Source: Anaerolineaceae bacterium (lineage in GTDB: Bacteria > Chloroflexota > Anaerolineae > Aggregatilineales > Phototrophicaceae). Taken from it: a DNA stretch of 64,000 nt. The DNA lies in assembly GCA_002702065.1 (NCBI GenBank), contig NZXX01000001.1, positions 62,001-126,000 of the forward strand, in the 5' to 3' direction. Shown one piece after another: positions 48,515 through 60,213 of the stretch. The notes beneath the pieces are model-generated. The model had not been told where the DNA came from. It was given only the letters and a program-made list of their open reading frames with translations, and did no database searches. The position numbers and the translations under genes are program-made. Positions within the stretch are counted from its first letter, which is position 1. Every line of letters begins with the position of its first letter.

Positions 48515-51500
48515 TTACGATGAAATTTGCAGGGTATGATCGCTGTCGGATACGGGCAGCGTAAAAATGAAGATACTGCCGCCTGCGGGATTGTCGTCGA
48601 TCCAGATGCGCCCGTTGTGCGCTTCCACTGCCAGCTTGCAGAAGTTCAGGCCCAGCCCGCTTCCCCGCCTCAGCCTGCCACTCTGGTTTTGAATCTGCAC
48701 GAAACGGTCGAAGATGCTTAGTCGTTCGGCTTCGGGTACGCCCGGCCCCTGATCAATGACCTCAACGCGCAAGACTTTCTCTTGTAACACAGCGTGAATA
48801 CGAATTTCGCTTTCGCGTGGGCTGAACTTGAGCGCATTATCGACCAGGTTGAGCAGGACGCGCTCGATCTTTTCGACATCCATCACGGTCTGCGGCAGAT
48901 CGTCCGGGATGTGCGCCGTGATGTGGACGCCCAGATCGTTGGCCAGCGGTTCCAGTTCGCTGCACACATTTTCCGCCAGCGGCCCCAGGACAGAAACTTC
49001 CAGATGCAGGGACATGATGCCGCTTTTCATGCGGGAAATATCCAGCAGCGAGTCGACGCGGTTCAGCAGTTTGCGAATAGCCCGTTTGCTGGAACCGGCT
49101 GTCTTCTGGACGAGCGCGCTGAATTCATTCTCCGGCGGCATAATCTCGCTGAGCAGTTCCACGCTGCTGGTAATAGCTGTCAGCGGGCTGCGGAGATCGT
49201 GAATAATCATTTGCGAGAATTCTTCGCGGGCACGTTCCAGGTTATGGCGTTCGGTTTCGTCGCTGAACACCAGCAGTAATCCAATGACATCTGCCTGCTC
49301 ATCGCGTACGGGGATCATCTGCCGCCGGATATACCGGGCGTTGGTTTCGGTCGTCAGGTTGTAGGCACAGGTATCCGCCCGCACGACAGGCGCCCGCAGT
49401 GTATTCACCACGCGCAGCAGTTCCGAATCCGTCTCGAAGCCCAGCCGCTCGGCCAGCCGCAGGTCCGGGTTTGCCAGCAGATCGCTCAGGTTCTGGCTGA
49501 TCAGGACATCGCTTTCGAGGCCGAGCAGGTCCACTCGTGGATTGGCCAGCGCAATATAGGCGCGCCGGTTAATCAGAATCAAGCCATCCGTCATGGTGTT
49601 CAGGATCGCCTGCATCCGGTCGCGGCCTTCGGCGGCATTATGGAACAGGTGGGCATTCTCGATTGCAAAAACTGCCTGATTCACCAGCCGTTCCACAAAA
49701 TCGTGTTGTTCGTCGGTGTATGGCTGGTTGTTTTCCAGGGTAATGGCCCCCAGTGTGTCGCCCTGCCAGTTAATCGGGATCGACAACTGGACGTTATTCC
49801 CCTCGACCAGACTGATGTAGGCCGGGTCACTTTGCGAGCTGTGGATGGCCTGACCGCTGCTGAGGACGCGCCCGGTTATGCCCTCGGTGAACGGGTGACC
49901 GTTAAGGGTGTTTGCCGGATAGCCATGTCGCGCCATCAGGTGCATGTGGCCGTTATAGCGGTCGCGCAGCAGGACGACCCCGGCTTTGGTGTTGGTGGCC
50001 GCCACTGCCGACTGAAGCAGCAGGTTGGAAATCATCTCCAGGTCCGTCGTCGCCATCAGATGCCGCGCCAGCGCCGCCAGCACGGAAAGCTGCTCGATGC
50101 GGTTTTCCAGCGCGCGATACGTGCCCGCATACAGGTCCGCATTGCGAATGGCCTGTGCCGCCTGATTAGCAAAGGTGCGCAGCAGTTCGATTTCTTCACC
50201 GGAGAAAAACTGCGGACTGTCAAAATACAGAATGATCGCGCCGATGGTCTGTCCGCTGACAGCTAGTGGCAGCTCGATCCACGCCTGTTTGCGTTCCGCC
50301 AGCCAGGCCGGGTGTTGTTTGCTCACACGATGATCTGTCGCGGCGTTTTCGATCACCACCGGTTGGGCGGCGCTGCCGAGCCGGTCTTGATCCTGAACAT
50401 TCAGAATCGGGTTTGCGTCGAATGATTCGCTCAGCCCGGCGCAGCGCACCAGCGTAAAGTCCTCTGTCTCATAACGGTAGACAGCAATGGCGGTCGCGTC
50501 CGAAACGGCGGAAGCTGACGAGATGACCGTATCCAGCACGTCATCCGGCGACAGGGTTTCGGTCAGCAGCATCAGCACCATGTTCAGGTTGCTCAGGCGC
50601 ACAGCCCGCTCGGTCTGCTGTTTATAGAGCTGCGCATTGTCGATGGCAGCGCTAACCGCTGAAGCAATGATATGAAGAACGCGCTGTTCCGACTCACCGT
50701 AGCGCTGCGCCGGGTCAACCGACGCGATTTCGAGTACGCCCAGCACGCGACCGCCCACCAGCAGCGGCACGCCCAGCCAGCACCACGCCGGGTAATCCGG
50801 TGGAGTCAGCCCTCGGCGTTGAGCGTCTTGTGTGGCGTTGGCACTCAACAGCAGCGGTGACTGGGTGCGCAGGACCTGATCGATTACGGTGTTGGGCTGG
50901 TGGCGTTGGGGGTCAGATACGGGTATCTGCTGTCCCTGACGGATAGCCACGATGCCGTGCAGATGCTTGCTGTCCGGTTCGTAGAGCATGGCGGTAAAGT
51001 GGTCAATGGGTACGACTTCACCTAACTCCTGATAGACGGCCTGCAACAGTTTTTCGATGTCCTGGTTGGCTCGCATCGCACGGCTGACATTGGCGATCAC
51101 CCGCATTTCCCGGATTCGCTGCATCCGGTCGTTGTGCATTCTGCTGAAGCCATGCAGGCCGGGGACGAGTGGAACCATCACTGCCACGATCAGGCCATAG
51201 TAGACGTTGGGTGTACCAGCGTCGAGCCGGGCCAGAAACAGTACCAGCGGCAGCGGCGCTACAAACACCAGCAGCAGCAGGATTCGGTTATCAGACACAG
51301 TTTCCCAAACCGGGAGACCATCAACATAAAGCGCCAACAGGTAAATCAAAAGACCGATCAGTGGATAGGCGGCGGCAAACAGAATGAGTTGGCCAAGTTG
51401 CTCGGTTGCTTGCGGGTACAGGCTGCTAATGATGCCAAAAGACAGAATGGTCGCGGCAGCCATCATGAAGATCTGGGCGTTAGAGGCCGGGTACTGTCTG

Positions 51501-51811
51501 CCGGGCTGCTGCTGGGGATAGCCAATGATCGCCAGCGCACCGGCCACAGCTCCTGTCGCGATACCCCATAGCAGCGTTGAATGTGATTCGGCGGGCAGCA
51601 TCACGACAGCCATCAGCCCCACCACATAAGCGGTGCTGACCCAGCCTCTGGTCAGGCGAACCCCATAATACTGGGCGGCAAACGTCAGCGCGCCACATAA
51701 CAGGGCCGCACCGGCATATTCCGGGCGAAACTGCGGCAGCCGCAGCAGCAGAACAAGGGTCGTGAGCAGGGCCAGCAGCGATAAAATCAAATTCCGATTC
51801 AGGCGAATCAT
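48515..51811 (-). CDS. Multi-GAF membrane sensor histidine kinase (1098 aa)
   Basis: The 1098-residue kinase has about seven N-terminal transmembrane helices (residues 1-220), then three GAF domains (about 250-395, 415-560 and 580-725). A PAS-like domain (735-850) is followed by a HisKA domain with H871 in IIHDLRSPLTAI and a HATPase_c domain with N992 in LVDNALKF. The G boxes DQGPGVPEA and RRGSGLGLNFCKLAV are intact, so it should be an active kinase. GAF domains bind small molecules, haem or bilins; here they give no chromophore Cys that I can name. It lies directly downstream of the larger kinase at 51894-56069, separated by a hairpin. No response regulator is adjacent. Confidence 0.93.
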   Translation of the reverse strand: MIRLNRNLILSLLALLTTLVLLLRLPQFRPEYAGAALLCGALTFAAQYYGVRLTRGWVSTAYVVGLMAVVMLPAESHSTLLWGIATGAVAGALAIIGYPQQQPGRQYPASNAQIFMMAAATILSFGIISSLYPQATEQLGQLILFAAAYPLIGLLIYLLALYVDGLPVWETVSDNRILLLLVFVAPLPLVLFLARLDAGTPNVYYGLIVAVMVPLVPGLHGFSRMHNDRMQRIREMRVIANVSRAMRANQDIEKLLQAVYQELGEVVPIDHFTAMLYEPDSKHLHGIVAIRQGQQIPVSDPQRHQPNTVIDQVLRTQSPLLLSANATQDAQRRGLTPPDYPAWCWLGVPLLVGGRVLGVLEIASVDPAQRYGESEQRVLHIIASAVSAAIDNAQLYKQQTERAVRLSNLNMVLMLLTETLSPDDVLDTVISSASAVSDATAIAVYRYETEDFTLVRCAGLSESFDANPILNVQDQDRLGSAAQPVVIENAATDHRVSKQHPAWLAERKQAWIELPLAVSGQTIGAIILYFDSPQFFSGEEIELLRTFANQAAQAIRNADLYAGTYRALENRIEQLSVLAALARHLMATTDLEMISNLLLQSAVAATNTKAGVVLLRDRYNGHMHLMARHGYPANTLNGHPFTEGITGRVLSSGQAIHSSQSDPAYISLVEGNNVQLSIPINWQGDTLGAITLENNQPYTDEQHDFVERLVNQAVFAIENAHLFHNAAEGRDRMQAILNTMTDGLILINRRAYIALANPRVDLLGLESDVLISQNLSDLLANPDLRLAERLGFETDSELLRVVNTLRAPVVRADTCAYNLTTETNARYIRRQMIPVRDEQADVIGLLLVFSDETERHNLERAREEFSQMIIHDLRSPLTAITSSVELLSEIMPPENEFSALVQKTAGSSKRAIRKLLNRVDSLLDISRMKSGIMSLHLEVSVLGPLAENVCSELEPLANDLGVHITAHIPDDLPQTVMDVEKIERVLLNLVDNALKFSPRESEIRIHAVLQEKVLRVEVIDQGPGVPEAERLSIFDRFVQIQNQSGRLRRGSGLGLNFCKLAVEAHNGRIWIDDNPAGGSIFIFTLPVSDSDHTLQISS

Positions 51812-51893: not shown

Positions 51894-54800
51894 TTATATC
51901 CTGGCGATAGGTAAGGTAAAAATAAAACATGCGCCCGGCAGGTCACAGTCATCGTCAATGCGGATGGTGCCGCCGTGACGTTCAATCGCCACTTTGACGA
52001 AGTTCAGGCCCAGTCCGTGACCTTTGTGGCCGCGCCGGGGTTCCTGGCCAGGGACCCGACGAAATCGCTCGAAAATGTCACTGCGCCGCTGGGGTGGGAT
52101 ACCCGGGCCAGAGTCTGCCAGCCGCACCTCGATCCATTTCCCCGGTTCCAGCACTTTTGCTGTCAGTTGAATGATGCCGCCTGTGGGGGTGTAGCGCACC
52201 GCGTTATCCAGCAGGTTGATGAGCGTACGCTCGATTTTCTCCCGGTCAACGTCGACGGGTGGCAAGTCATCGGGGAAGGTGGCTTTCAATTGAATGTCCG
52301 CTTTTTGCGCCGAAATCATGATGGCGTTGAAGGCGGTATCGACCAGAACAGGCAGGGTCGTGTTCTCGCGTTTGAGTTCCAGGCCGGGGCGCTGCATGCG
52401 GGAAATATCGAGCAGAGTCTCGACCAGCCGCAGCAGCCGGAAGGCGTTATCTCTGGAAGTGGAAATGAGAATGGCATTGTCGTCATTGTCTTCAGGGATA
52501 CCCAACCGGGGCAGCACGAGTTCCATAGCGCTCTGCATGGCCCCCAGCGGGCCGCGCAGGTCATGCACAACCATATCGGTAAAATCCTCGCGCTGTTCTT
52601 CCAGCAGGCGGGCCTCGGTAATGTCGCGCAGCACCAGCAAACGCCCGGTGATCTGCCCCTGTTCATCCCGAACGGGCAGGCCCACTTCCTCGATATACAA
52701 CGTGCTGCTGCCGTTCTGGCGTTGGAGTTCGCGTCGGGTTTCCGCTTCGGGGTGGGTGCGCAGCGTATTGACCAGCAAGTTTACATCCTGATGATCGTAC
52801 GCTTTCGTCCCGTTGTTTTCGATATGCGCGCCGAGTACATCGGGGAAATGCTGCCCAATGTGGTGGCGCAGGTCCATACCCAGCAGATACTCCGCGGATG
52901 GGTTGGTTTCGATGAGCAATACGTCGCAGTCGAGCAAGATCAGACCATCACGTGTCGAGTCGAGAATCGCCCGCATCTGGTCGCGCCCGGCCCGAATGCG
53001 CTCGTGCAAACCGGCATTTTCCAGGTGGCCGATGGCCTGGCTGGCCAGCAGATCAATGGTATTCGTATCCCGCTCGATGAACTGCCGATGATCGTCAAAG
53101 CCCAGGAAGATAATATAGCGTACTTCAAGCGCCCGTTTCAGCGGGACGGCGACCGCACTCGCATAATCGAAAACTTCGGTTTCGCTGTAAGCCGGGTGAT
53201 CATGCACGTCGAGCAGATGCACGACCTGCCCGGTCCTGCCGGCTTCGATGGCCAGATCATGCGGTAATGTTTCCTGGGCCTGAACGCTGTTTTGTTCGCT
53301 GTACCACAACTTTGCCAGGGTGCGTACCTGATTCCCCTCATATTCGTACAGCACTGCCTGATCCCCTTGCAGCAGTTGCAGGGCGGTTTCGAGGATTTCG
53401 TGCCCCACCGACCGAATATCATCAGCGCTCACCAGCCAGATCGAAAGCTCGCGCAGGCTTCGCAACAATTCAATTTCGTGCTGGCGATCTTCGACAAACC
53501 GGGCGTTTTCAATACTCATGACCGCGTGCCCGGCCAGGCTGGAAAGAAAACCGGCCTGCTCGGTACTGAACGCGTTCAACTGTTGGCTTTCTACCGTGAG
53601 TGCGCCCACCACTTCGCCAGATTTCAGCATCGGCACACCGATTGAGGATCGGTATTGATCGCCATAATCGGACTGGTAAAAGTCTGCTGCCTGATTATTC
53701 GGCACGATGACTGTTTGCCCGGTGGCCAGCACATAACCGGGCAGGCCTTCATGACGTTGCCTGGAGAGGTAGCGCGGTTCGGTCAGGCCATCTTCAATGC
53801 GACGCTCAATCGTCCACATTTCGCCGGTATCCGTCTCCAGCGCCAGCACCACCAGCCCGGCATCGGTCGCATGAACGGCTGCCTCAAGCACATGGTCAAT
53901 GATCTGCTGGAAATCCAGCGAACTGGAAACCTGCTGGGCGATGTCCTCAATGATGCTGGCCTGGGTCAGGCGTCGGTTGAGTTCGCGCTGGGTCCGTTCG
54001 TACAGGCGTACATTATTAATCTGGGTGGCAATCTGATTGGTTGCCATTTCAACGAACTGCCACTCTCGTGTGTCGAAGTGCCGGGGTTCCCGGCTGCCCA
54101 GCAGCACGGCGCCCAGGACCGTGTTGTTGGTCACCAGCGGCACCAGCGCCAGCGTAAATTCGTTGTAGGCGGTCATCTGCTCGAACATCGGCTGCGAGAG
54201 GGTGTCTTCGTTGTAATGAAAGGCATGGGCCGACGGCGATTTGGAGCGCGCCATGTGCAGCAGTTCGGGCAAAGGGTCGATGTACTGAACCGTTGAAGTG
54301 GATGATTTGTCGTTGGACGTTGCCAGCAGTTGTGCTCGCTGCGTATCGGTATCCAGCAGGATGATGGCTACCCGGCTGGCATCCGTCATCTGTTGGAGCA
54401 TATCCGCCACATCATGAACAACGGTATTCAGATCCAGGCTGGAGGTCGAAATGCGCGAAAGCTGAACCAACTGGCTCATCTCGGTCGCGTATTGTTCCAT
54501 CACGTCAAACAGGCGCACACTCTCTAGCATGGCTGCAATCTGATTCGCCAGCGTACCCAGCAGGTCAATCTCCTGTTGGGGGAAGTAGTGCGGTACATCA
54601 TAATAAGCGACCAGCGTACCTTGTGGTGACCGACCGGCGCTCAGCGGAATCATGGCGATTGCCTGGAACGACCCGGCAATGCTGGCTTTATGAAGATGGG
54701 TGTCGGCAGCGGTATCCACCTGACTGACGACCTGTGCCTGTTGAGGGATATGAGGCGGGTTTAGCGCAAGCCAGTCTTTGAATGAATCGGACAGCCCGAT

Positions 54801-56069
54801 ATTGGACTGAAGCTGAAGCGCATTGTCCTTCATCAGAAAAATGCCGATGCGCGATGCGCCCGTAATGGTATGGGCCGTACGGCAGGCCGCTTCGAGCGCG
54901 CTGTCGCGGTTGTTGCTGAACAGCACCTGATGCACCGACTCGTTGACTCGCGATAATTTGTTGACCAGATCCGCCTGGCGTGTGTAAAGGATGGCGTTTC
55001 TGACGGTAAGGCCCGCCTGATTGGCCAGTGTCTGAAGCACCTGGATTTCATCCTGACCGAAGGCATCTTCGCGCACCGTGCTCAGGACCGACATCACACC
55101 GATGACATGCGACCCAACCAGCAGGGGCACACCCAGGTAATCCATAAATGGCGCCGTAGGGGTCTCTTTTTCGATTTCCGGGTATTTATCGCGCTGGCTG
55201 GATTTCAGGTGCAGGGGCTGCTTGTGCTGAATAATATGATAGGCAGCGCCGCGATTGATCTCGCGTGCTTGCCAGTGGATGCGTTTGCCATCGGCAACGA
55301 CCAACCGAAAATCGAGCATCTGGCGTTGATCATCGTAGGTGGCAATGTAGAAGATTGAGACCTGAATCAACCGGGCGACACTCTCGTAGATGTTCCACAA
55401 GACATCATCGAGGTCCAGGTTGTCCGAGGTTAACTGGCCGACACTATTCAGCAGAGTCACTTCCTTGGCGCGCCGCTGAAGGGCTGCATTTGTGCGGTCG
55501 GTCTCGCGCGTATAGGTCGTTTGCAGGAGGAACAGGGCAATCAACAGCAGAAACAAGCCGGGGTTGTTGGTCGAGACCAGAAAGAGGATAAACAGCAGGT
55601 AGATCACCTGAAGGGCGATTTCAATTGGCGTTGGCCGGGCGATTGGCTGTCTGGTCAGGGCGAATTCAATCAGCGGGTTGGCGGTAAAACCAACCAGCAG
55701 GGCGATGCCGAGTGACAGGAGCGAAGCGGGTTGTGGATCCGTCAAAGGAACGGCTGTACCGAGCAGCGTCGCCAGAGTGGCGGTAATCAGCAGTGCCGCC
55801 AGCGTGGACAGTGTTTGCAGCAAAATCCGCCTGAAGTGTGCCAGCCGGTGCACGGCGATGGCCAATGCCATACCAACCAGCGCGACCACAGCCGCTGGCA
55901 GAATACCTAACGACGACCAGCACAGGAATATTGCCAGGGTGCGATATCCTGTCCATAAACTGCTGGTCTTATGGCTGTTTATAGTCAGTGCCAAAACAAA
56001 CAGGCTAAGACAACTACCTGCTTGTAATAGGCTAAACAGATCGGCCACGTCACCCCCCGGCGTTGGCAC
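51894..56069 (-). CDS. Very large multi-GAF membrane sensor histidine kinase (1391 aa)
   Basis: The 1391-residue kinase begins with about six transmembrane helices (residues 10-185). Five GAF-like domains follow (about 205-365, 370-520, 540-690, 705-860 and 870-1020), then a PAS-like domain (1030-1150). HisKA carries H1169 in VVHDLRGPLGAM and HATPase_c has N1289 in LLDNAVRY, with DSGPGIPP and GHGLGLNFVKVAI G boxes. The start is GTG 56069; there is no ATG nearby in frame and the Shine-Dalgarno is weak. The intergenic side faces the BTAD regulator, which is transcribed divergently, so a functional link is plausible. The five-GAF array is longer than usual. Confidence 0.9.
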   Translation of the reverse strand: MPTPGGDVADLFSLLQAGSCLSLFVLALTINSHKTSSLWTGYRTLAIFLCWSSLGILPAAVVALVGMALAIAVHRLAHFRRILLQTLSTLAALLITATLATLLGTAVPLTDPQPASLLSLGIALLVGFTANPLIEFALTRQPIARPTPIEIALQVIYLLFILFLVSTNNPGLFLLLIALFLLQTTYTRETDRTNAALQRRAKEVTLLNSVGQLTSDNLDLDDVLWNIYESVARLIQVSIFYIATYDDQRQMLDFRLVVADGKRIHWQAREINRGAAYHIIQHKQPLHLKSSQRDKYPEIEKETPTAPFMDYLGVPLLVGSHVIGVMSVLSTVREDAFGQDEIQVLQTLANQAGLTVRNAILYTRQADLVNKLSRVNESVHQVLFSNNRDSALEAACRTAHTITGASRIGIFLMKDNALQLQSNIGLSDSFKDWLALNPPHIPQQAQVVSQVDTAADTHLHKASIAGSFQAIAMIPLSAGRSPQGTLVAYYDVPHYFPQQEIDLLGTLANQIAAMLESVRLFDVMEQYATEMSQLVQLSRISTSSLDLNTVVHDVADMLQQMTDASRVAIILLDTDTQRAQLLATSNDKSSTSTVQYIDPLPELLHMARSKSPSAHAFHYNEDTLSQPMFEQMTAYNEFTLALVPLVTNNTVLGAVLLGSREPRHFDTREWQFVEMATNQIATQINNVRLYERTQRELNRRLTQASIIEDIAQQVSSSLDFQQIIDHVLEAAVHATDAGLVVLALETDTGEMWTIERRIEDGLTEPRYLSRQRHEGLPGYVLATGQTVIVPNNQAADFYQSDYGDQYRSSIGVPMLKSGEVVGALTVESQQLNAFSTEQAGFLSSLAGHAVMSIENARFVEDRQHEIELLRSLRELSIWLVSADDIRSVGHEILETALQLLQGDQAVLYEYEGNQVRTLAKLWYSEQNSVQAQETLPHDLAIEAGRTGQVVHLLDVHDHPAYSETEVFDYASAVAVPLKRALEVRYIIFLGFDDHRQFIERDTNTIDLLASQAIGHLENAGLHERIRAGRDQMRAILDSTRDGLILLDCDVLLIETNPSAEYLLGMDLRHHIGQHFPDVLGAHIENNGTKAYDHQDVNLLVNTLRTHPEAETRRELQRQNGSSTLYIEEVGLPVRDEQGQITGRLLVLRDITEARLLEEQREDFTDMVVHDLRGPLGAMQSAMELVLPRLGIPEDNDDNAILISTSRDNAFRLLRLVETLLDISRMQRPGLELKRENTTLPVLVDTAFNAIMISAQKADIQLKATFPDDLPPVDVDREKIERTLINLLDNAVRYTPTGGIIQLTAKVLEPGKWIEVRLADSGPGIPPQRRSDIFERFRRVPGQEPRRGHKGHGLGLNFVKVAIERHGGTIRIDDDCDLPGACFIFTLPIARI

Positions 56070-56627: not shown

Positions 56628-57929
56628 ATGATTTCACAAATTACGAACGTTACCGTTGCTGATTTTGAGCAGCGTTCTGAGGGTAAAAAAGTAATCCTGC
56701 TGTATCCCTGGACCAACTATCGTACTGTTTTTCTCGCTCATCTCCTGGAAAGTGTTGACAAAGGCTTATTGTATTATCGCATTGTCGACGAAAACCCGAG
56801 CCTAGAAACATGGCTGTCGGCGATGCTGGCAGAACTGGATCAGGTGTTGGAGGGATGGGGCACTAACCTGCAACAAGCGATCGAGTCCGGGAAGCCCAGT
56901 CAGATGGGTGAGGCGCTGGCGGCTGACCTCGCGCAGTATGCTAAAGACAATCGCATCATTTTGTTCATCGATGAGTTTGATCGGGTCCCTTTAAATGGGA
57001 AGTTTCGCGAATTCATCGAAGCGGCTGTGGCGGCGTTAGGACCAGACATACAACTGGCCTTTAGCTCCCGGCGTTTGACGTTTGAACCGTGGTATCGTAT
57101 GGTCGCCGATGGCGAAGCCTGCGTACTCGGTACCGAACTGCGCAAAAATGATGGTATGTTCACCGTCGAGCCAGCGGCACGGCCTCAACTCGAGGTTTAT
57201 GCGCTGGGGCGGGGTTATGCTATCGTCAATGGACAGATGATTACGAACTGGGATGGCGCTTTGCCGCGCAACCTGTTCTTCTACTTTATGGATAACCCTC
57301 TGGTCACCAGAGATGAGATATTTGCGACTTTCTGGCCGGACTTGTCCGTGAAGGAAGCCACCAATGTTTTCCATGTGACCAAGCGTAAAATCAGCGAACG
57401 CATCAGCATGAAGGTCGGCGACGGCAAAAGCTACGAATTGACCATGTATTCGGGCGGTTTTTACACACCGGGTGAAAAAATTGTCCGGCATTACGATGTG
57501 GCCGATTTTCAGGATTCGATTGATCGGGCGATGATCGCCACCAGCGACGAACAGGAAAAAGCGCTGCTGGCTGAGGCTATCGAATTGTATAAGGCCCCCT
57601 ACCTGCAAACCGTCGATATGCCCTGGGTGGTCGAACGGCGCGATCAGCTGCGCCAGTTATACGCCCAGACATTAATCAGCATGGCGCGTCTGCATAAACG
57701 GCGTAATGAACTCGATCACGCGTTGGGTTATTTTATTCGCGCCCTCAAGGAAACACCTGAGCGCGAAGATATTCACCGCGAAGTGATGACTATTTATCTG
57801 AAACAGGAAATGTTCCAGGATGCCCGGCGTCAGTACCGGACACTGGAAAAAATTCTGCAAGAGACACTCGGTATTGGTCCATCACGTGAGACGCGGGAAC
57901 TGTTTGACTTGATCGCGGCGCGCAGCTAG
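56628..57929 (+). CDS. BTAD-family transcriptional regulator with degenerate ATPase N-terminus
   Basis: The 433-residue protein has three parts. Residues 1-180 look like a reduced STAND-type ATPase: Walker-B-like IILFIDEFDRV (D115-E116) and the AFSSRR sensor are present, but the P-loop G-x4-GK(S/T) is missing from the place it should occupy (VILLYPWTNYRTVFLAHLL). Residues 185-285 are a winged-helix OmpR-type domain (LFFYFMDNPLVTRDEIFATF and NVFHVTKRKISERI). Residues 288-430 are a BTAD helical repeat (ALGYFIRALKETPEREDIHR and YRTLEKILQETLGIGPSRET). AAGGTG lies before the ATG. BTAD regulators activate secondary functions in Actinobacteria and Chloroflexota. Here the divergent giant kinase and the exported-protein genes on its right are candidate targets. 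Confidence 0.87.
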   Translation: MISQITNVTVADFEQRSEGKKVILLYPWTNYRTVFLAHLLESVDKGLLYYRIVDENPSLETWLSAMLAELDQVLEGWGTNLQQAIESGKPSQMGEALAADLAQYAKDNRIILFIDEFDRVPLNGKFREFIEAAVAALGPDIQLAFSSRRLTFEPWYRMVADGEACVLGTELRKNDGMFTVEPAARPQLEVYALGRGYAIVNGQMITNWDGALPRNLFFYFMDNPLVTRDEIFATFWPDLSVKEATNVFHVTKRKISERISMKVGDGKSYELTMYSGGFYTPGEKIVRHYDVADFQDSIDRAMIATSDEQEKALLAEAIELYKAPYLQTVDMPWVVERRDQLRQLYAQTLISMARLHKRRNELDHALGYFIRALKETPEREDIHREVMTIYLKQEMFQDARRQYRTLEKILQETLGIGPSRETRELFDLIAARS

Positions 57930-58543
57930 CGATACTGCCAGATCGGTGCAAAGCCGTGCCAGCGATAATCGCCGGGTGCGGCACAGGCCGGATACCCCTC
58001 AAATATACCCAGTAGTGAAATCGTCGCGGATGGCTGCCACGCATCAGGGCTTGGCAGCAGCACCGTGCCGCTGATGACATGATGTTCGGTTTGCCACGAA
58101 ACAGCGACCAGCTCATGCCCATCGGTCCCCTGGGAAATGCGGATACAGTCCGGTGCGCCCAGCAGTTCCATGACCTGCCACAGCGGCAGATGGGTTTCCA
58201 ATCGTACACCACTGACTAATCCCCGCTTATCGTAAACCACGCCGCGCAGGGTTTGCCCCGGTGTGGTCGCCGCAAAGTTAATTTGGGTCACGACCCCCCG
58301 AAATTCGACATTCATGCCGGGCAGGTGCGCGGTGATTAATCTCGGCACCGCGTCGGTTCGTGTTTCCGCCGGCGTAATCCCTGCCCAACACGGCAGCGGG
58401 CAGGTATCGAATCCCGGATTGACCTGGTCATCCACCGCAGGGTGCGGGGGCGGCGTGGTGGTGGCCAGCGACAGCCCTACCAGCACTGTGAACAACAACA
58501 GCAGCCGGATACCCCAACGTTGAACTACCAGCAACAAGGGCAA
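57926..58543 (-). CDS. Exported Cys-motif protein, third paralogue of a tandem set
   Basis: The 205-residue protein has an N-terminal hydrophobic anchor (RLLLLFTVLVGLSLA), then TCPLPCWAGITPAETRTD, a strand-rich middle, LPLWQVMELLGAPDCI and a final YPACAAPGDYRWHGF. The start is TTG (58543, 58537 or 58534); GAGG is best placed for 58537. The stop overlaps the BTAD gene end by 4 bases. The shared Cys/Trp pattern with the next two genes shows common origin, but this copy is most divergent (ITPAETR in place of IEPGRTP). Confidence 0.75.
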   Translation of the reverse strand: MPLLLVVQRWGIRLLLLFTVLVGLSLATTTPPPHPAVDDQVNPGFDTCPLPCWAGITPAETRTDAVPRLITAHLPGMNVEFRGVVTQINFAATTPGQTLRGVVYDKRGLVSGVRLETHLPLWQVMELLGAPDCIRISQGTDGHELVAVSWQTEHHVISGTVLLPSPDAWQPSATISLLGIFEGYPACAAPGDYRWHGFAPIWQYR

Positions 58544-58547
58544 ATCC

Positions 58548-59120
58548 TCATGTCAACCGCAGGGAGGCCAGTCCGCGCCAGGCAGACAAGTCGATGCACG
58601 GGTCTTTGGCCACTCTGGTAAGCACCAGCACTTCGCTGCGCCATTCCGGGTTGGAGGGGGCCGCCAGAAAATGCGAATGCACATAAATATCGTTGATTCG
58701 CCAGTACACATCAAACACGACCGGGTTGCTCTCTGTGCGCTGGTAACAGGCTGGCTCATCAAATAACAACAACAGCCGCCATAGCGGTAACGTGGCCCGC
58801 AGTTGAATCGAATAGACCAGACCGTTGCTGTCGTCGATGGTGGCGCGGTTGCCGTCTTCTGTGGGGTAGACCATGTAGGACCGGATGCCGCGCACCTGCC
58901 AGCGGCGTTCCGGGAAGCGCTGGGCGATGATATTTTGCACCGCTGCGAAGGGGGTGCGTCCCGGTTCGATGCCAATCCAGCAGGGAACCGTACACAGCGC
59001 CAGTCCATCCAGATACTGGTCCAGCAGTGGCTGGCTGTGCGCGAGGCCAACCAGCAGTCCGATGGTCAGAACGAGGACAATACCGGTAATCAGCATGAGG
59101 CGGGTCATCAGCGGGAGCAT
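58548..59120 (-). CDS. Exported Cys-motif protein, second paralogue of a tandem set
   Basis: The 190-residue protein starts at ATG 59120 (GAGG seven bases before), seven bases after the previous gene's stop. It has a signal-anchor (MLITGIVLVLTIGLLVGLA), then LCTVPCWIGIEPGRTPF, TLPLWRLLLLFDEPACY and a terminal DPCIDLSAWRGLASL. The four cysteines in these conserved positions are probably paired outside the membrane. A frame to 59189 overlaps the previous gene and is rejected. Function unknown. Confidence 0.78.
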   Translation of the reverse strand: MLPLMTRLMLITGIVLVLTIGLLVGLAHSQPLLDQYLDGLALCTVPCWIGIEPGRTPFAAVQNIIAQRFPERRWQVRGIRSYMVYPTEDGNRATIDDSNGLVYSIQLRATLPLWRLLLLFDEPACYQRTESNPVVFDVYWRINDIYVHSHFLAAPSNPEWRSEVLVLTRVAKDPCIDLSAWRGLASLRLT

Positions 59121-59127
59121 GGCGGCC

Positions 59128-59748
59128 TCATGGATAGCGGGCGAGCACAGCGTAACCTGGCCACGCCAGCGATTGGCCCGGTTTGTCACAGGGCATGGCC
59201 GAGCCGGGAGCAGGTGACCAGACAGTCAATGCGTGTGTGGGCATATCCGAATCCGCGTGCGACAGCTCCAGGCTGGACATGATGTAAACGTCATTCTGTT
59301 CCCAGAAAATATTGATTGCTCCCAGTTCCCGCCGGTTGTCGAGCCACTCGATGCAGCGTGGTTGATCGAGCAGCAGCAGCATTTGCCACAACGGCTGGAC
59401 GACGTCGAGGCGAATCAGACTGACTGTGCCTTCGCGCGCCGAAATGGACCCTGTGATATGGCGTGCAGAGACATCGATGACGTAATTGGCGAAGCGCTGA
59501 TAAGGTTGAATACTGACAGGTGCATCGGCCATATAGGTCTGAACCACATCCGCGACCTGATCGACTGGTGTGCGCCCCGGCTCCAACCCGGCCCAGCAGG
59601 GCACAGTGCAGAGTTGCAGGCCGGATTCGAGGTCAGGCAGCGGCTGCCGTTGTGTGATGGCCAGTGTCGCCAGCAGGGCCAGCGCCCAAACTGCCAGCAT
59701 GATGATGCTCAGCCGCCAGAGCAGATTTTGCATGTCGCGCAATCTCAC
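59128..59748 (-). CDS. Exported Cys-motif protein, first paralogue of a tandem set
   Basis: The 206-residue protein has an N-terminal helix (LSIIMLAVWALALLATLAI), then LCTVPCWAGLEPGRTPV, a sheet-rich middle, QPLWQMLLLLDQPRCI and the C-terminal MPCDKPGQSLAWPGYAV. Start GTG 59748 or ATG 59733 cannot be separated; neither has a Shine-Dalgarno. It heads an operon of three similar genes, which end at the BTAD gene. I recognise no named family. Confidence 0.78.
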   Translation of the reverse strand: MRLRDMQNLLWRLSIIMLAVWALALLATLAITQRQPLPDLESGLQLCTVPCWAGLEPGRTPVDQVADVVQTYMADAPVSIQPYQRFANYVIDVSARHITGSISAREGTVSLIRLDVVQPLWQMLLLLDQPRCIEWLDNRRELGAINIFWEQNDVYIMSSLELSHADSDMPTHALTVWSPAPGSAMPCDKPGQSLAWPGYAVLARYP

Positions 59749-59799: not shown

Positions 59800-60213
59800 A
59801 TGGCAAATCAACCCAACAAGATTCCTTCCGATCATATTGGCGTATTGCTGGCTGCGACGGTGATGATTGTCGGCGGCTGGGGTGGTCTGTATACCCTGGT
59901 GACGACGACCTTGCCCCGCGTGGGCCAGCGCTGGCTGTTTTTTGTGCTGCTGCATATCGCTGTGACGGGGACGGTGCTGCCGTTTGTGCGTTACCTCAAC
60001 GTACGCTTCACCCCGATTGATGTGCCGCTGCCGCCGGGTGGTGTGCTGGTGCGCCAGAGTGTGTGGGTTGGCCTGTTTGTTGTGACCTGTGCGTGGCTGC
60101 AAATACCGCGTGTGCTCAACCCGCCCATCGCCTTTTTTATCGCGCTGGTATTCGTGGTGATCGAGGTGTTTTTGCGGTCCAGAGAAATCGCGCAGGAACG
60201 TTACGACGACTGA
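59800..60213 (+). CDS. Four-TM hypothetical membrane protein
   Basis: The 137-residue protein has four hydrophobic helices (IGVLLAATVMIVGGWGGLYTL, WLFFVLLHIAVTGTVLPF, VWVGLFVVTCAWLQI and IAFFIALVFVVIEVFL) and short loops. No family is named. There is no Shine-Dalgarno, but an immediately preceding TATAAT suggests leaderless translation. It is transcribed away from the exported Cys-motif operon. Confidence 0.78.
   Translation: MANQPNKIPSDHIGVLLAATVMIVGGWGGLYTLVTTTLPRVGQRWLFFVLLHIAVTGTVLPFVRYLNVRFTPIDVPLPPGGVLVRQSVWVGLFVVTCAWLQIPRVLNPPIAFFIALVFVVIEVFLRSREIAQERYDD

What the first reader, a model, noticed from the sequence alone, without database searches (positions are those of the whole stretch)
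57926..59748. Three tandem paralogues of an unnamed exported Cys-motif family
Each protein has one N-terminal membrane helix, a Cys-x2-(V/L)PCW-x-G-(I/L)-x-P motif, a PLW...(D/G)-x-P-x-C motif, and a C-terminal Cys-plus-Trp segment. The pattern is shared by all three and matches no family I can name. Local triplication in one operon beside a regulator suggests diversified binding partners or a secreted structure.
Basis: seen in the sequence. Interest (0 to 1): 0.55.

Follow-up and report, generated by a model that had tools for sequence, protein, structure and literature searches.

The report
Chloroflexi exported BLIP-like disulfide protein family
Three neighbouring genes make membrane-anchored outside-facing proteins of an unnamed family found almost only in Anaerolineae bacteria, and a sister branch of the family sits directly behind Rhs metallopeptidase toxin genes like an immunity protein.

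Summary
Three same-strand ORFs share an N-terminal helix, CxxPCWxG(I/L)xP, PLW...(D/G)xPxC and a C-terminal Cys/Trp segment. No Pfam or NCBIfam family matches.
The triplet is part of a larger family: 20 copies in the genome, 12 of them in one array, and 38 of 41 nearby genomes. A DNA pattern for the motif hit almost only Chloroflexota records.
Cysteine number from the motif onward is even in 128 of 131 members, against 146 of 249 control ORFs, which indicates disulfides. The AlphaFold model (pLDDT 81.5) has two helix-plus-sheet units; nearest solved folds are YjgB/DUF4309, SCP-associated domains and, weakly, BLIP.
The strongest functional clue lies outside the window. The 'CWWG' branch, mostly lipoproteins, follows Rhs proteins ending in an unannotated HExxH zincin. 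Searching with the zincin found a family gene just downstream at 16 of 21 loci; without 5 seed loci, 11 of 14 testable ones.
I read the window proteins as anchored, disulfide-stabilised, BLIP-like protein-binding domains. Whether they are immunity proteins is untested. The regulator is conserved beside them but convergent.

The parts
59128..59748 (-). Family member P0003 (206 aa from GTG; likely start ATG at 59733)
   Evidence: AlphaFold model pLDDT 81.5
58548..59189 (-). Family member P0002 (213 aa from GTG; likely start ATG at 59120, just after the P0003 stop)
57926..58543 (-). Family member P0001 (205 aa, TTG start 4 bases after the P0002 stop)
59578..59610 (-). CTVPCWAGLEP motif of P0003 (C1, C2)
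58962..58994 (-). CTVPCWIGIEP motif of P0002 (C1, C2)
58370..58402 (-). CPLPCWAGITP motif of P0001 (C1, C2)
59353..59394 (-). PLWQMLLLLDQPRC of P0003: helix of the second unit and C3
58746..58787 (-). PLWRLLLLFDEPAC of P0002
58145..58186 (-). PLWQVMELLGAPDC of P0001
56628..57929 (+). P0004, BTAD-domain protein, convergent neighbour conserved beside the family gene in 6 of 7 relative loci fetched around P0003 matches (L205, L206, L208-L211; not L207)
   Evidence: BTAD 1.4e-17; conserved neighbourhood
59800..60213 (+). P0005, divergent small membrane protein; homologues beside family genes in L206, L207, L208

Best explanation
The triplet encodes three diverged copies of an exported domain held at the outer face of the membrane by an uncleaved or signal-like N-terminal helix. 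The domain folds as two helix-plus-four-strand units (BLIP-like/DUF4309-like). The CxxPC pair at the head of unit 1, and usually a second pair, form disulfides made by the cell's VKOR/DsbA-type oxidation pathway. It most likely works as a protein-binding domain: the sheet face binds, and in one branch inhibits, an extracytoplasmic partner, and copies in arrays diverge to bind different partners. In the 'CWWG' sister branch the partner is inferred to be the zincin at the tip of an Rhs protein, with the family lipoprotein as its immunity protein. Shown by tools: family, motif, copy number, Cys parity, predicted fold, gene pairing. Inferred: disulfide connectivity, location, binding, inhibition.
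For: Family and copies. Hydrophobic stretch ahead of the motif in 108 of 110 members under 300 aa examined, 58 of them also with a lipobox pattern. Even Cys count in 128 of 131 vs 146 of 249 controls; 13 members have only C1 and C2 from the motif on. DsbA-like Thioredoxin_4 domain fused ahead of the family domain in L029, L035, L064, L071, L143, L152, L161; VKOR-type gene cluster near it in 22 loci, 4 of 4 scanned members confirmed; own genome has 2 VKOR genes. Fold: two models with the same repeated order and the same best match, YjgB/DUF4309 Z 8.8 and 7.3 (131 and 134 residues, 3.9 and 4.7 A), with SCP-associated domains 4ifa and 4h0a and YfeY next. Pairing: zincin upstream of 15 of 30 CWWG/CWGG genes vs 1 of 83 others, the one (L136) falling in the CWWG clade; from the zincin side, 16 of 21, 11 of 14 testable without seed loci.
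Against: The window clade lies outside the CWWG clade, and neither this zincin nor an Rhs core above cut-off was found in the window's genome, so function cannot be carried over directly. Fold matches are modest (Z under 9; BLIP itself 2.7-4.5), Foldseek gave no PDB hit at E<=0.001, and a profile test for an internal repeat was negative. The conserved synteny with a BTAD gene could mean a housekeeping role instead.
Confidence: 0.55

Rival explanations
1. The window triplet and the arrays are orphan immunity proteins: each neutralises an incoming extracellular toxin (metallopeptidase or other) made by competitors, hence local duplication and divergence.
For: CWWG branch pairs with Rhs zincins; arrays of 2-12 diverged copies; one solved fold match is an Rhs immunity protein, RhsI1 6xtd_B Z 6.2 and 4.2.
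Against: No toxin gene recognised next to the triplet or arrays in the loci read; window clade is separate from the CWWG clade; the RhsI1 match is in the range of chance Z.
Confidence: 0.2
2. The CxxPC pair is redox-active and the protein is a thiol partner of the DsbA/VKOR pathway.
For: DsbA-like fusions and VKOR neighbourhood; CxxPC invariant in A3.
Against: No thioredoxin fold in the domain models; spacing is C-x3-C, not CXXC; extra Cys come in pairs as in structural disulfides. The 115-member alignment was selected partly by this motif.
Confidence: 0.12
3. A BamE-like envelope structural or assembly factor, with tandem copies adjusting dosage or variants.
For: Lipoprotein subfamily sits in a conserved block with a PPC-domain secreted protein (33 loci); near-universal in the close relatives.
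Against: Expansion to 12 diverged copies and the toxin-linked branch do not fit a housekeeping factor; patchy in the class, 31 of 199.
Confidence: 0.1

Closest known systems
DUF4309 (B. subtilis YjgB, PDB 4ygt)
   Same: best solved-structure match for both models, over 131-134 residues
   Different: no match to the DUF4309 Pfam model in 115 members at E<=0.1; the CxxPCW motif is not part of it as far as I recall
BLIP (beta-lactamase inhibitory protein)
   Same: two helix-plus-sheet units in order (BLIP layout recalled); weak structural match Z 2.7-4.5
   Different: anchored or lipoprotein; CxxPC motif; no Pfam-level sequence match; target not known
Polymorphic toxin immunity proteins, e.g. lipoprotein Imm65 (Zhang et al. 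2012, PMC3482391; passages read)
   Same: CWWG branch: gene directly downstream of an Rhs C-terminal toxin-like domain; lipobox in most
   Different: the passages call Imm65 the only lipoprotein immunity protein in that collection, tied to Tox-JAB-1, and list no immunity protein for the HExxH families Tox-MPTase1-5; no Imm model matched here
DsbA-like Thioredoxin_4 proteins
   Same: fused in front of the family domain in seven proteins
   Different: the family domain itself has no Thioredoxin match and a different predicted fold

Membership tests
BLIP-like / DUF4309 fold class | two tandem helix-plus-four-strand units | tested here: met
   DSSP order helix-4 strands-helix-strands in both models, the second unit less regular
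BLIP-like / DUF4309 fold class | structural match above background to solved members | tested here: inconclusive
   YjgB Z 8.8 and 7.3, BLIP 2.7-4.5; tool notes that Z under 8 may be a common arrangement
DUF4309 (Pfam) | match to the Pfam profile | tested here: not met
   no DUF4309 match at E<=0.1 in 115 members
Polymorphic toxin immunity protein (CWWG branch) | gene directly downstream of the toxin gene | tested here: met
   16 of 21 zincin loci; 11 of 14 testable without seed loci
Polymorphic toxin immunity protein (CWWG branch) | neutralises the toxin | not testable with these tools
   needs experiment
Polymorphic toxin immunity protein (window triplet) | gene directly downstream of a toxin gene | tested here: not met
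   neighbours are P0005 and P0004; zincin not found in the genome at E<=1e-5
Thiol oxidoreductase (DsbA/thioredoxin) | thioredoxin fold with CXXC | tested here: not met
   C-x3-C and a helix/sheet repeat instead; no Pfam match

The most novel reading that the evidence does not exclude
Anaerolineae carry a large, lineage-specific system of exported BLIP-like inhibitors: lipoproteins paired one to one with Rhs-borne metallopeptidase toxins in one branch, and tandem arrays of orphan inhibitors (including this triplet) that shield the cell surface from competitors' toxins in others.
Probability: 0.2. Interest if true: 0.78.

Novelty: new variant of a known kind. Interest (0 to 1): 0.58.

Why it matters
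It gives a first handle on one of the many unnamed exported families of Anaerolineae, which are abundant in sludge and sediment but hard to culture. The CWWG branch makes a directly testable toxin-immunity pair whose immunity partner would act outside the membrane against a peptidase. In the 2012 survey passages that I read, the HExxH toxin families had no listed immunity protein. The arrays would then be a natural library of diverged binders on a common disulfide-stabilised scaffold.

Tried and rejected
Known enzyme or domain: rejected, no Pfam or NCBIfam match for the three proteins at E<=1, and only scattered weak Pfam matches among 115 relatives. Profile against PDB sequences: one meaningless hit, E 0.21. 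Internal repeat by profile-profile comparison of the two halves: negative, so the repeat rests on predicted structure only. Foldseek against viral models: one hit at E<=0.001, an unnamed phage protein, not followed. Viral contigs: a looser DNA pattern hit 9 stretches, and none of these gave an ORF with the protein motif in the listing. Same operon as the regulator: rejected (convergent). Recent triplication: rejected (21-33% identity). Own genome as source of the zincin toxin: none found; Rhs core only one sub-threshold match. Array next to exopolysaccharide genes: AsnB-like and sugar-transferase-like genes flank the 12-gene array, but the next genes are unrelated (partly by eye), so I did not build on it. 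Literature: seven searches listed no paper that I recognised as describing this family; only passages of PMC3482391 were read, all other papers were seen as listings only. The first zincin count (13 of 21 upstream ORFs in the CWWG group) was made by eye on the same loci and is replaced. A misfit kept in view: three zincin loci (L172, L175, L181) gave no family match by profile; L172 has an ORF downstream that looks like a diverged member without CxxPC (by eye), while L175 and L181 have other proteins there. Cys position coordinates in the models were not available, so disulfide geometry was not tested.

Full report
Observation. The three ORFs are real and tandem on the minus strand at the stated coordinates. 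Each has an N-terminal hydrophobic helix, CxxPCWxG(I/L)xP, PLW...(D/G)xPxC and a C-terminal Cys plus W-x-G-x-A segment, with four Cys from the motif on. They align with 25 invariant columns at 21-25% identity to P0001. The neighbour at 56628-57929 has a BTAD domain but runs convergently on the plus strand.

Family in the genome. P0003 alone finds its two neighbours plus weak matches. Reading those places showed a singleton and a 12-gene tandem array on another contig with CxxPC(F/L)xG(I/L/V)xPG and a second motif around LGxP. A profile of 16 copies finds 20 places in the genome, and 38 of 41 genomes of the same genus, family and order at E<=0.01. A 115-row profile finds 31 of 199 genomes of the class and 12 of 201 of a phylum sample at E<=1e-6, two of those outside the class: near-universal close by, patchy further off.

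Family beyond. Of the 80 rows printed, 78 bear Chloroflexota-type names; L056 (Pleurocapsa) and L110 (Bacteroidetes) do not, and L136 is labelled Nanosynbacter in the tree listing. These may be binning errors. The hits are chosen by motif, so motif invariance in A3 is partly by construction.

Export and disulfides. Of 110 members under 300 aa examined, 108 had a hydrophobic stretch ahead of the motif and 58 of these also a lipobox pattern by a simple script. From the motif onward the Cys number is even in 128 of 131 complete ORFs; among 249 neighbouring mechanical ORFs of 120-400 aa with 2-8 Cys it is even in 146. Thirteen members have only C1 and C2, so C1 pairs most simply with C2. At least two of the 131 are the same array genes read from different starts (one search shows identical pairs), and P0001, whose motif has PA for PG, is not among the 131. 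Seven members carry an N-terminal DsbA-like Thioredoxin_4 domain; in the lipoprotein subfamily a VKOR gene cluster lies nearby in 22 loci; the window's genome has two VKOR genes.

Fold. P0003 with 115 rows gave pLDDT 81.5, pTM 0.71: helix 2-27, then helix, four strands, helix, strands. A CWWG protein (L132) gave pLDDT 91.8, pTM 0.89 with the same repeated order and a C-terminal helical extension. Second-look structural alignment puts YjgB/DUF4309 first for both (Z 8.8 and 7.3), followed among others by SCP-associated domains, YfeY and, much lower, BLIP. Foldseek found no PDB match at E<=0.001 for either. Z values are middling, so the fold class is likely but not proven; that DUF4309 is BLIP-like is recalled, not tested.

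Gene context of the window. Around P0003 matches in relatives, seven loci were fetched (L205-L211). A P0004 homologue (34-78% identity) lies convergent beside the family gene in six of them (L205, L206, L208-L211); L205 has two family genes, the others one by the profile used. A kinase cluster related to the two giant window ORFs lies near in L205, L206, L208 and L209. So the locus is conserved and the copy number grew in this lineage; another genome has two adjacent copies related to the window group (L031).

Rhs-linked branch. In the tree the CWWG proteins form a supported group of 25 rows (99/96), and the three window proteins fall in a separate group of five with two adjacent copies of another genome (100/95); the bootstrap had not settled. 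Many CWWG genes start close behind the end of an Rhs-core protein (8 of 8 scanned carry TIGR03696; distances) whose C-terminus has invariant HExGH and ExFAD...W and no Pfam family. By profile, 15 of 30 CWWG/CWGG genes have this zincin within 1.2 kb upstream, against 1 of 83 other members; that one, L136, sits in the CWWG clade. The profile was built from 13 of these loci, so I searched from the other side: 298 genomes of the class gave 21 zincin matches in 11 genomes, 16 with a family gene directly downstream. Five of the 21 are seed loci. Of the remaining 16, two run off the contig, 11 of 14 have the family gene, and three do not (L172, L175, L181). This is the arrangement of a toxin and its immunity gene; neutralisation is inferred.

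Reading. For the window I commit to an anchored, extracytoplasmic, disulfide-stabilised BLIP-like binding domain (0.55). That the triplet itself is orphan immunity is possible (0.2) but no toxin lies beside it and the genome lacks the zincin and any Rhs core above cut-off. Redox partner (0.12) and envelope assembly factor (0.1) are the other rivals.

Known or new. No curated family covers it in the libraries searched. Zhang et al. 2012 (PMC3482391, passages only) describe Imm65 as the only lipoprotein in their immunity set and list no immunity protein for Tox-MPTase1-5. Seven literature searches listed nothing that I recognised as this family. I file it as a new variant of a known kind: an unnamed exported family whose one branch extends toxin-immunity systems.

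Noticed in passing
L166-L186; L055, L091, L104, L132, L154 and others: Unannotated HExxH zincin domain (HELGH...EEFADMYLGWVY) at the C-terminus of Rhs proteins; no Pfam family matched.
   Followed up: partly
L029:631-2139, L035:1357-2586, L064:4203-5999, L071:5342-7153, L161:6139-7431: Fusions of one or two DsbA-like Thioredoxin_4 domains to the family domain.
   Followed up: partly
L009:9580-17463 (own genome, other contig): Twelve-gene tandem array of the family beside an asparagine-synthase-like gene; genes of the same cluster also lie near family genes in L200, L204, L214, L217.
   Followed up: partly
L195:7418-8074, L200:6783-7349, L201:8362-8961, L217:5821-6441: A DSP-PTPase-type gene (PF22785/PF00782 in L195) lies beside or inside family gene clusters; the other three belong to the same blastp cluster.
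   Followed up: no
L056, L110, L136: Records labelled Pleurocapsa, Bacteroidetes and Nanosynbacter carry the otherwise Chloroflexota family; possible binning errors or transfer.
   Followed up: no
window 48515-51811 and 51894-56069, minus strand: Two giant sensor-kinase-like ORFs (1098 and 1391 aa, named by eye); the related cluster is near the family gene in L205, L206, L208, L209.
   Followed up: partly
L083:3162-5060, L114:3837-5636: Single proteins with two copies of the CxxPCW domain.
   Followed up: no
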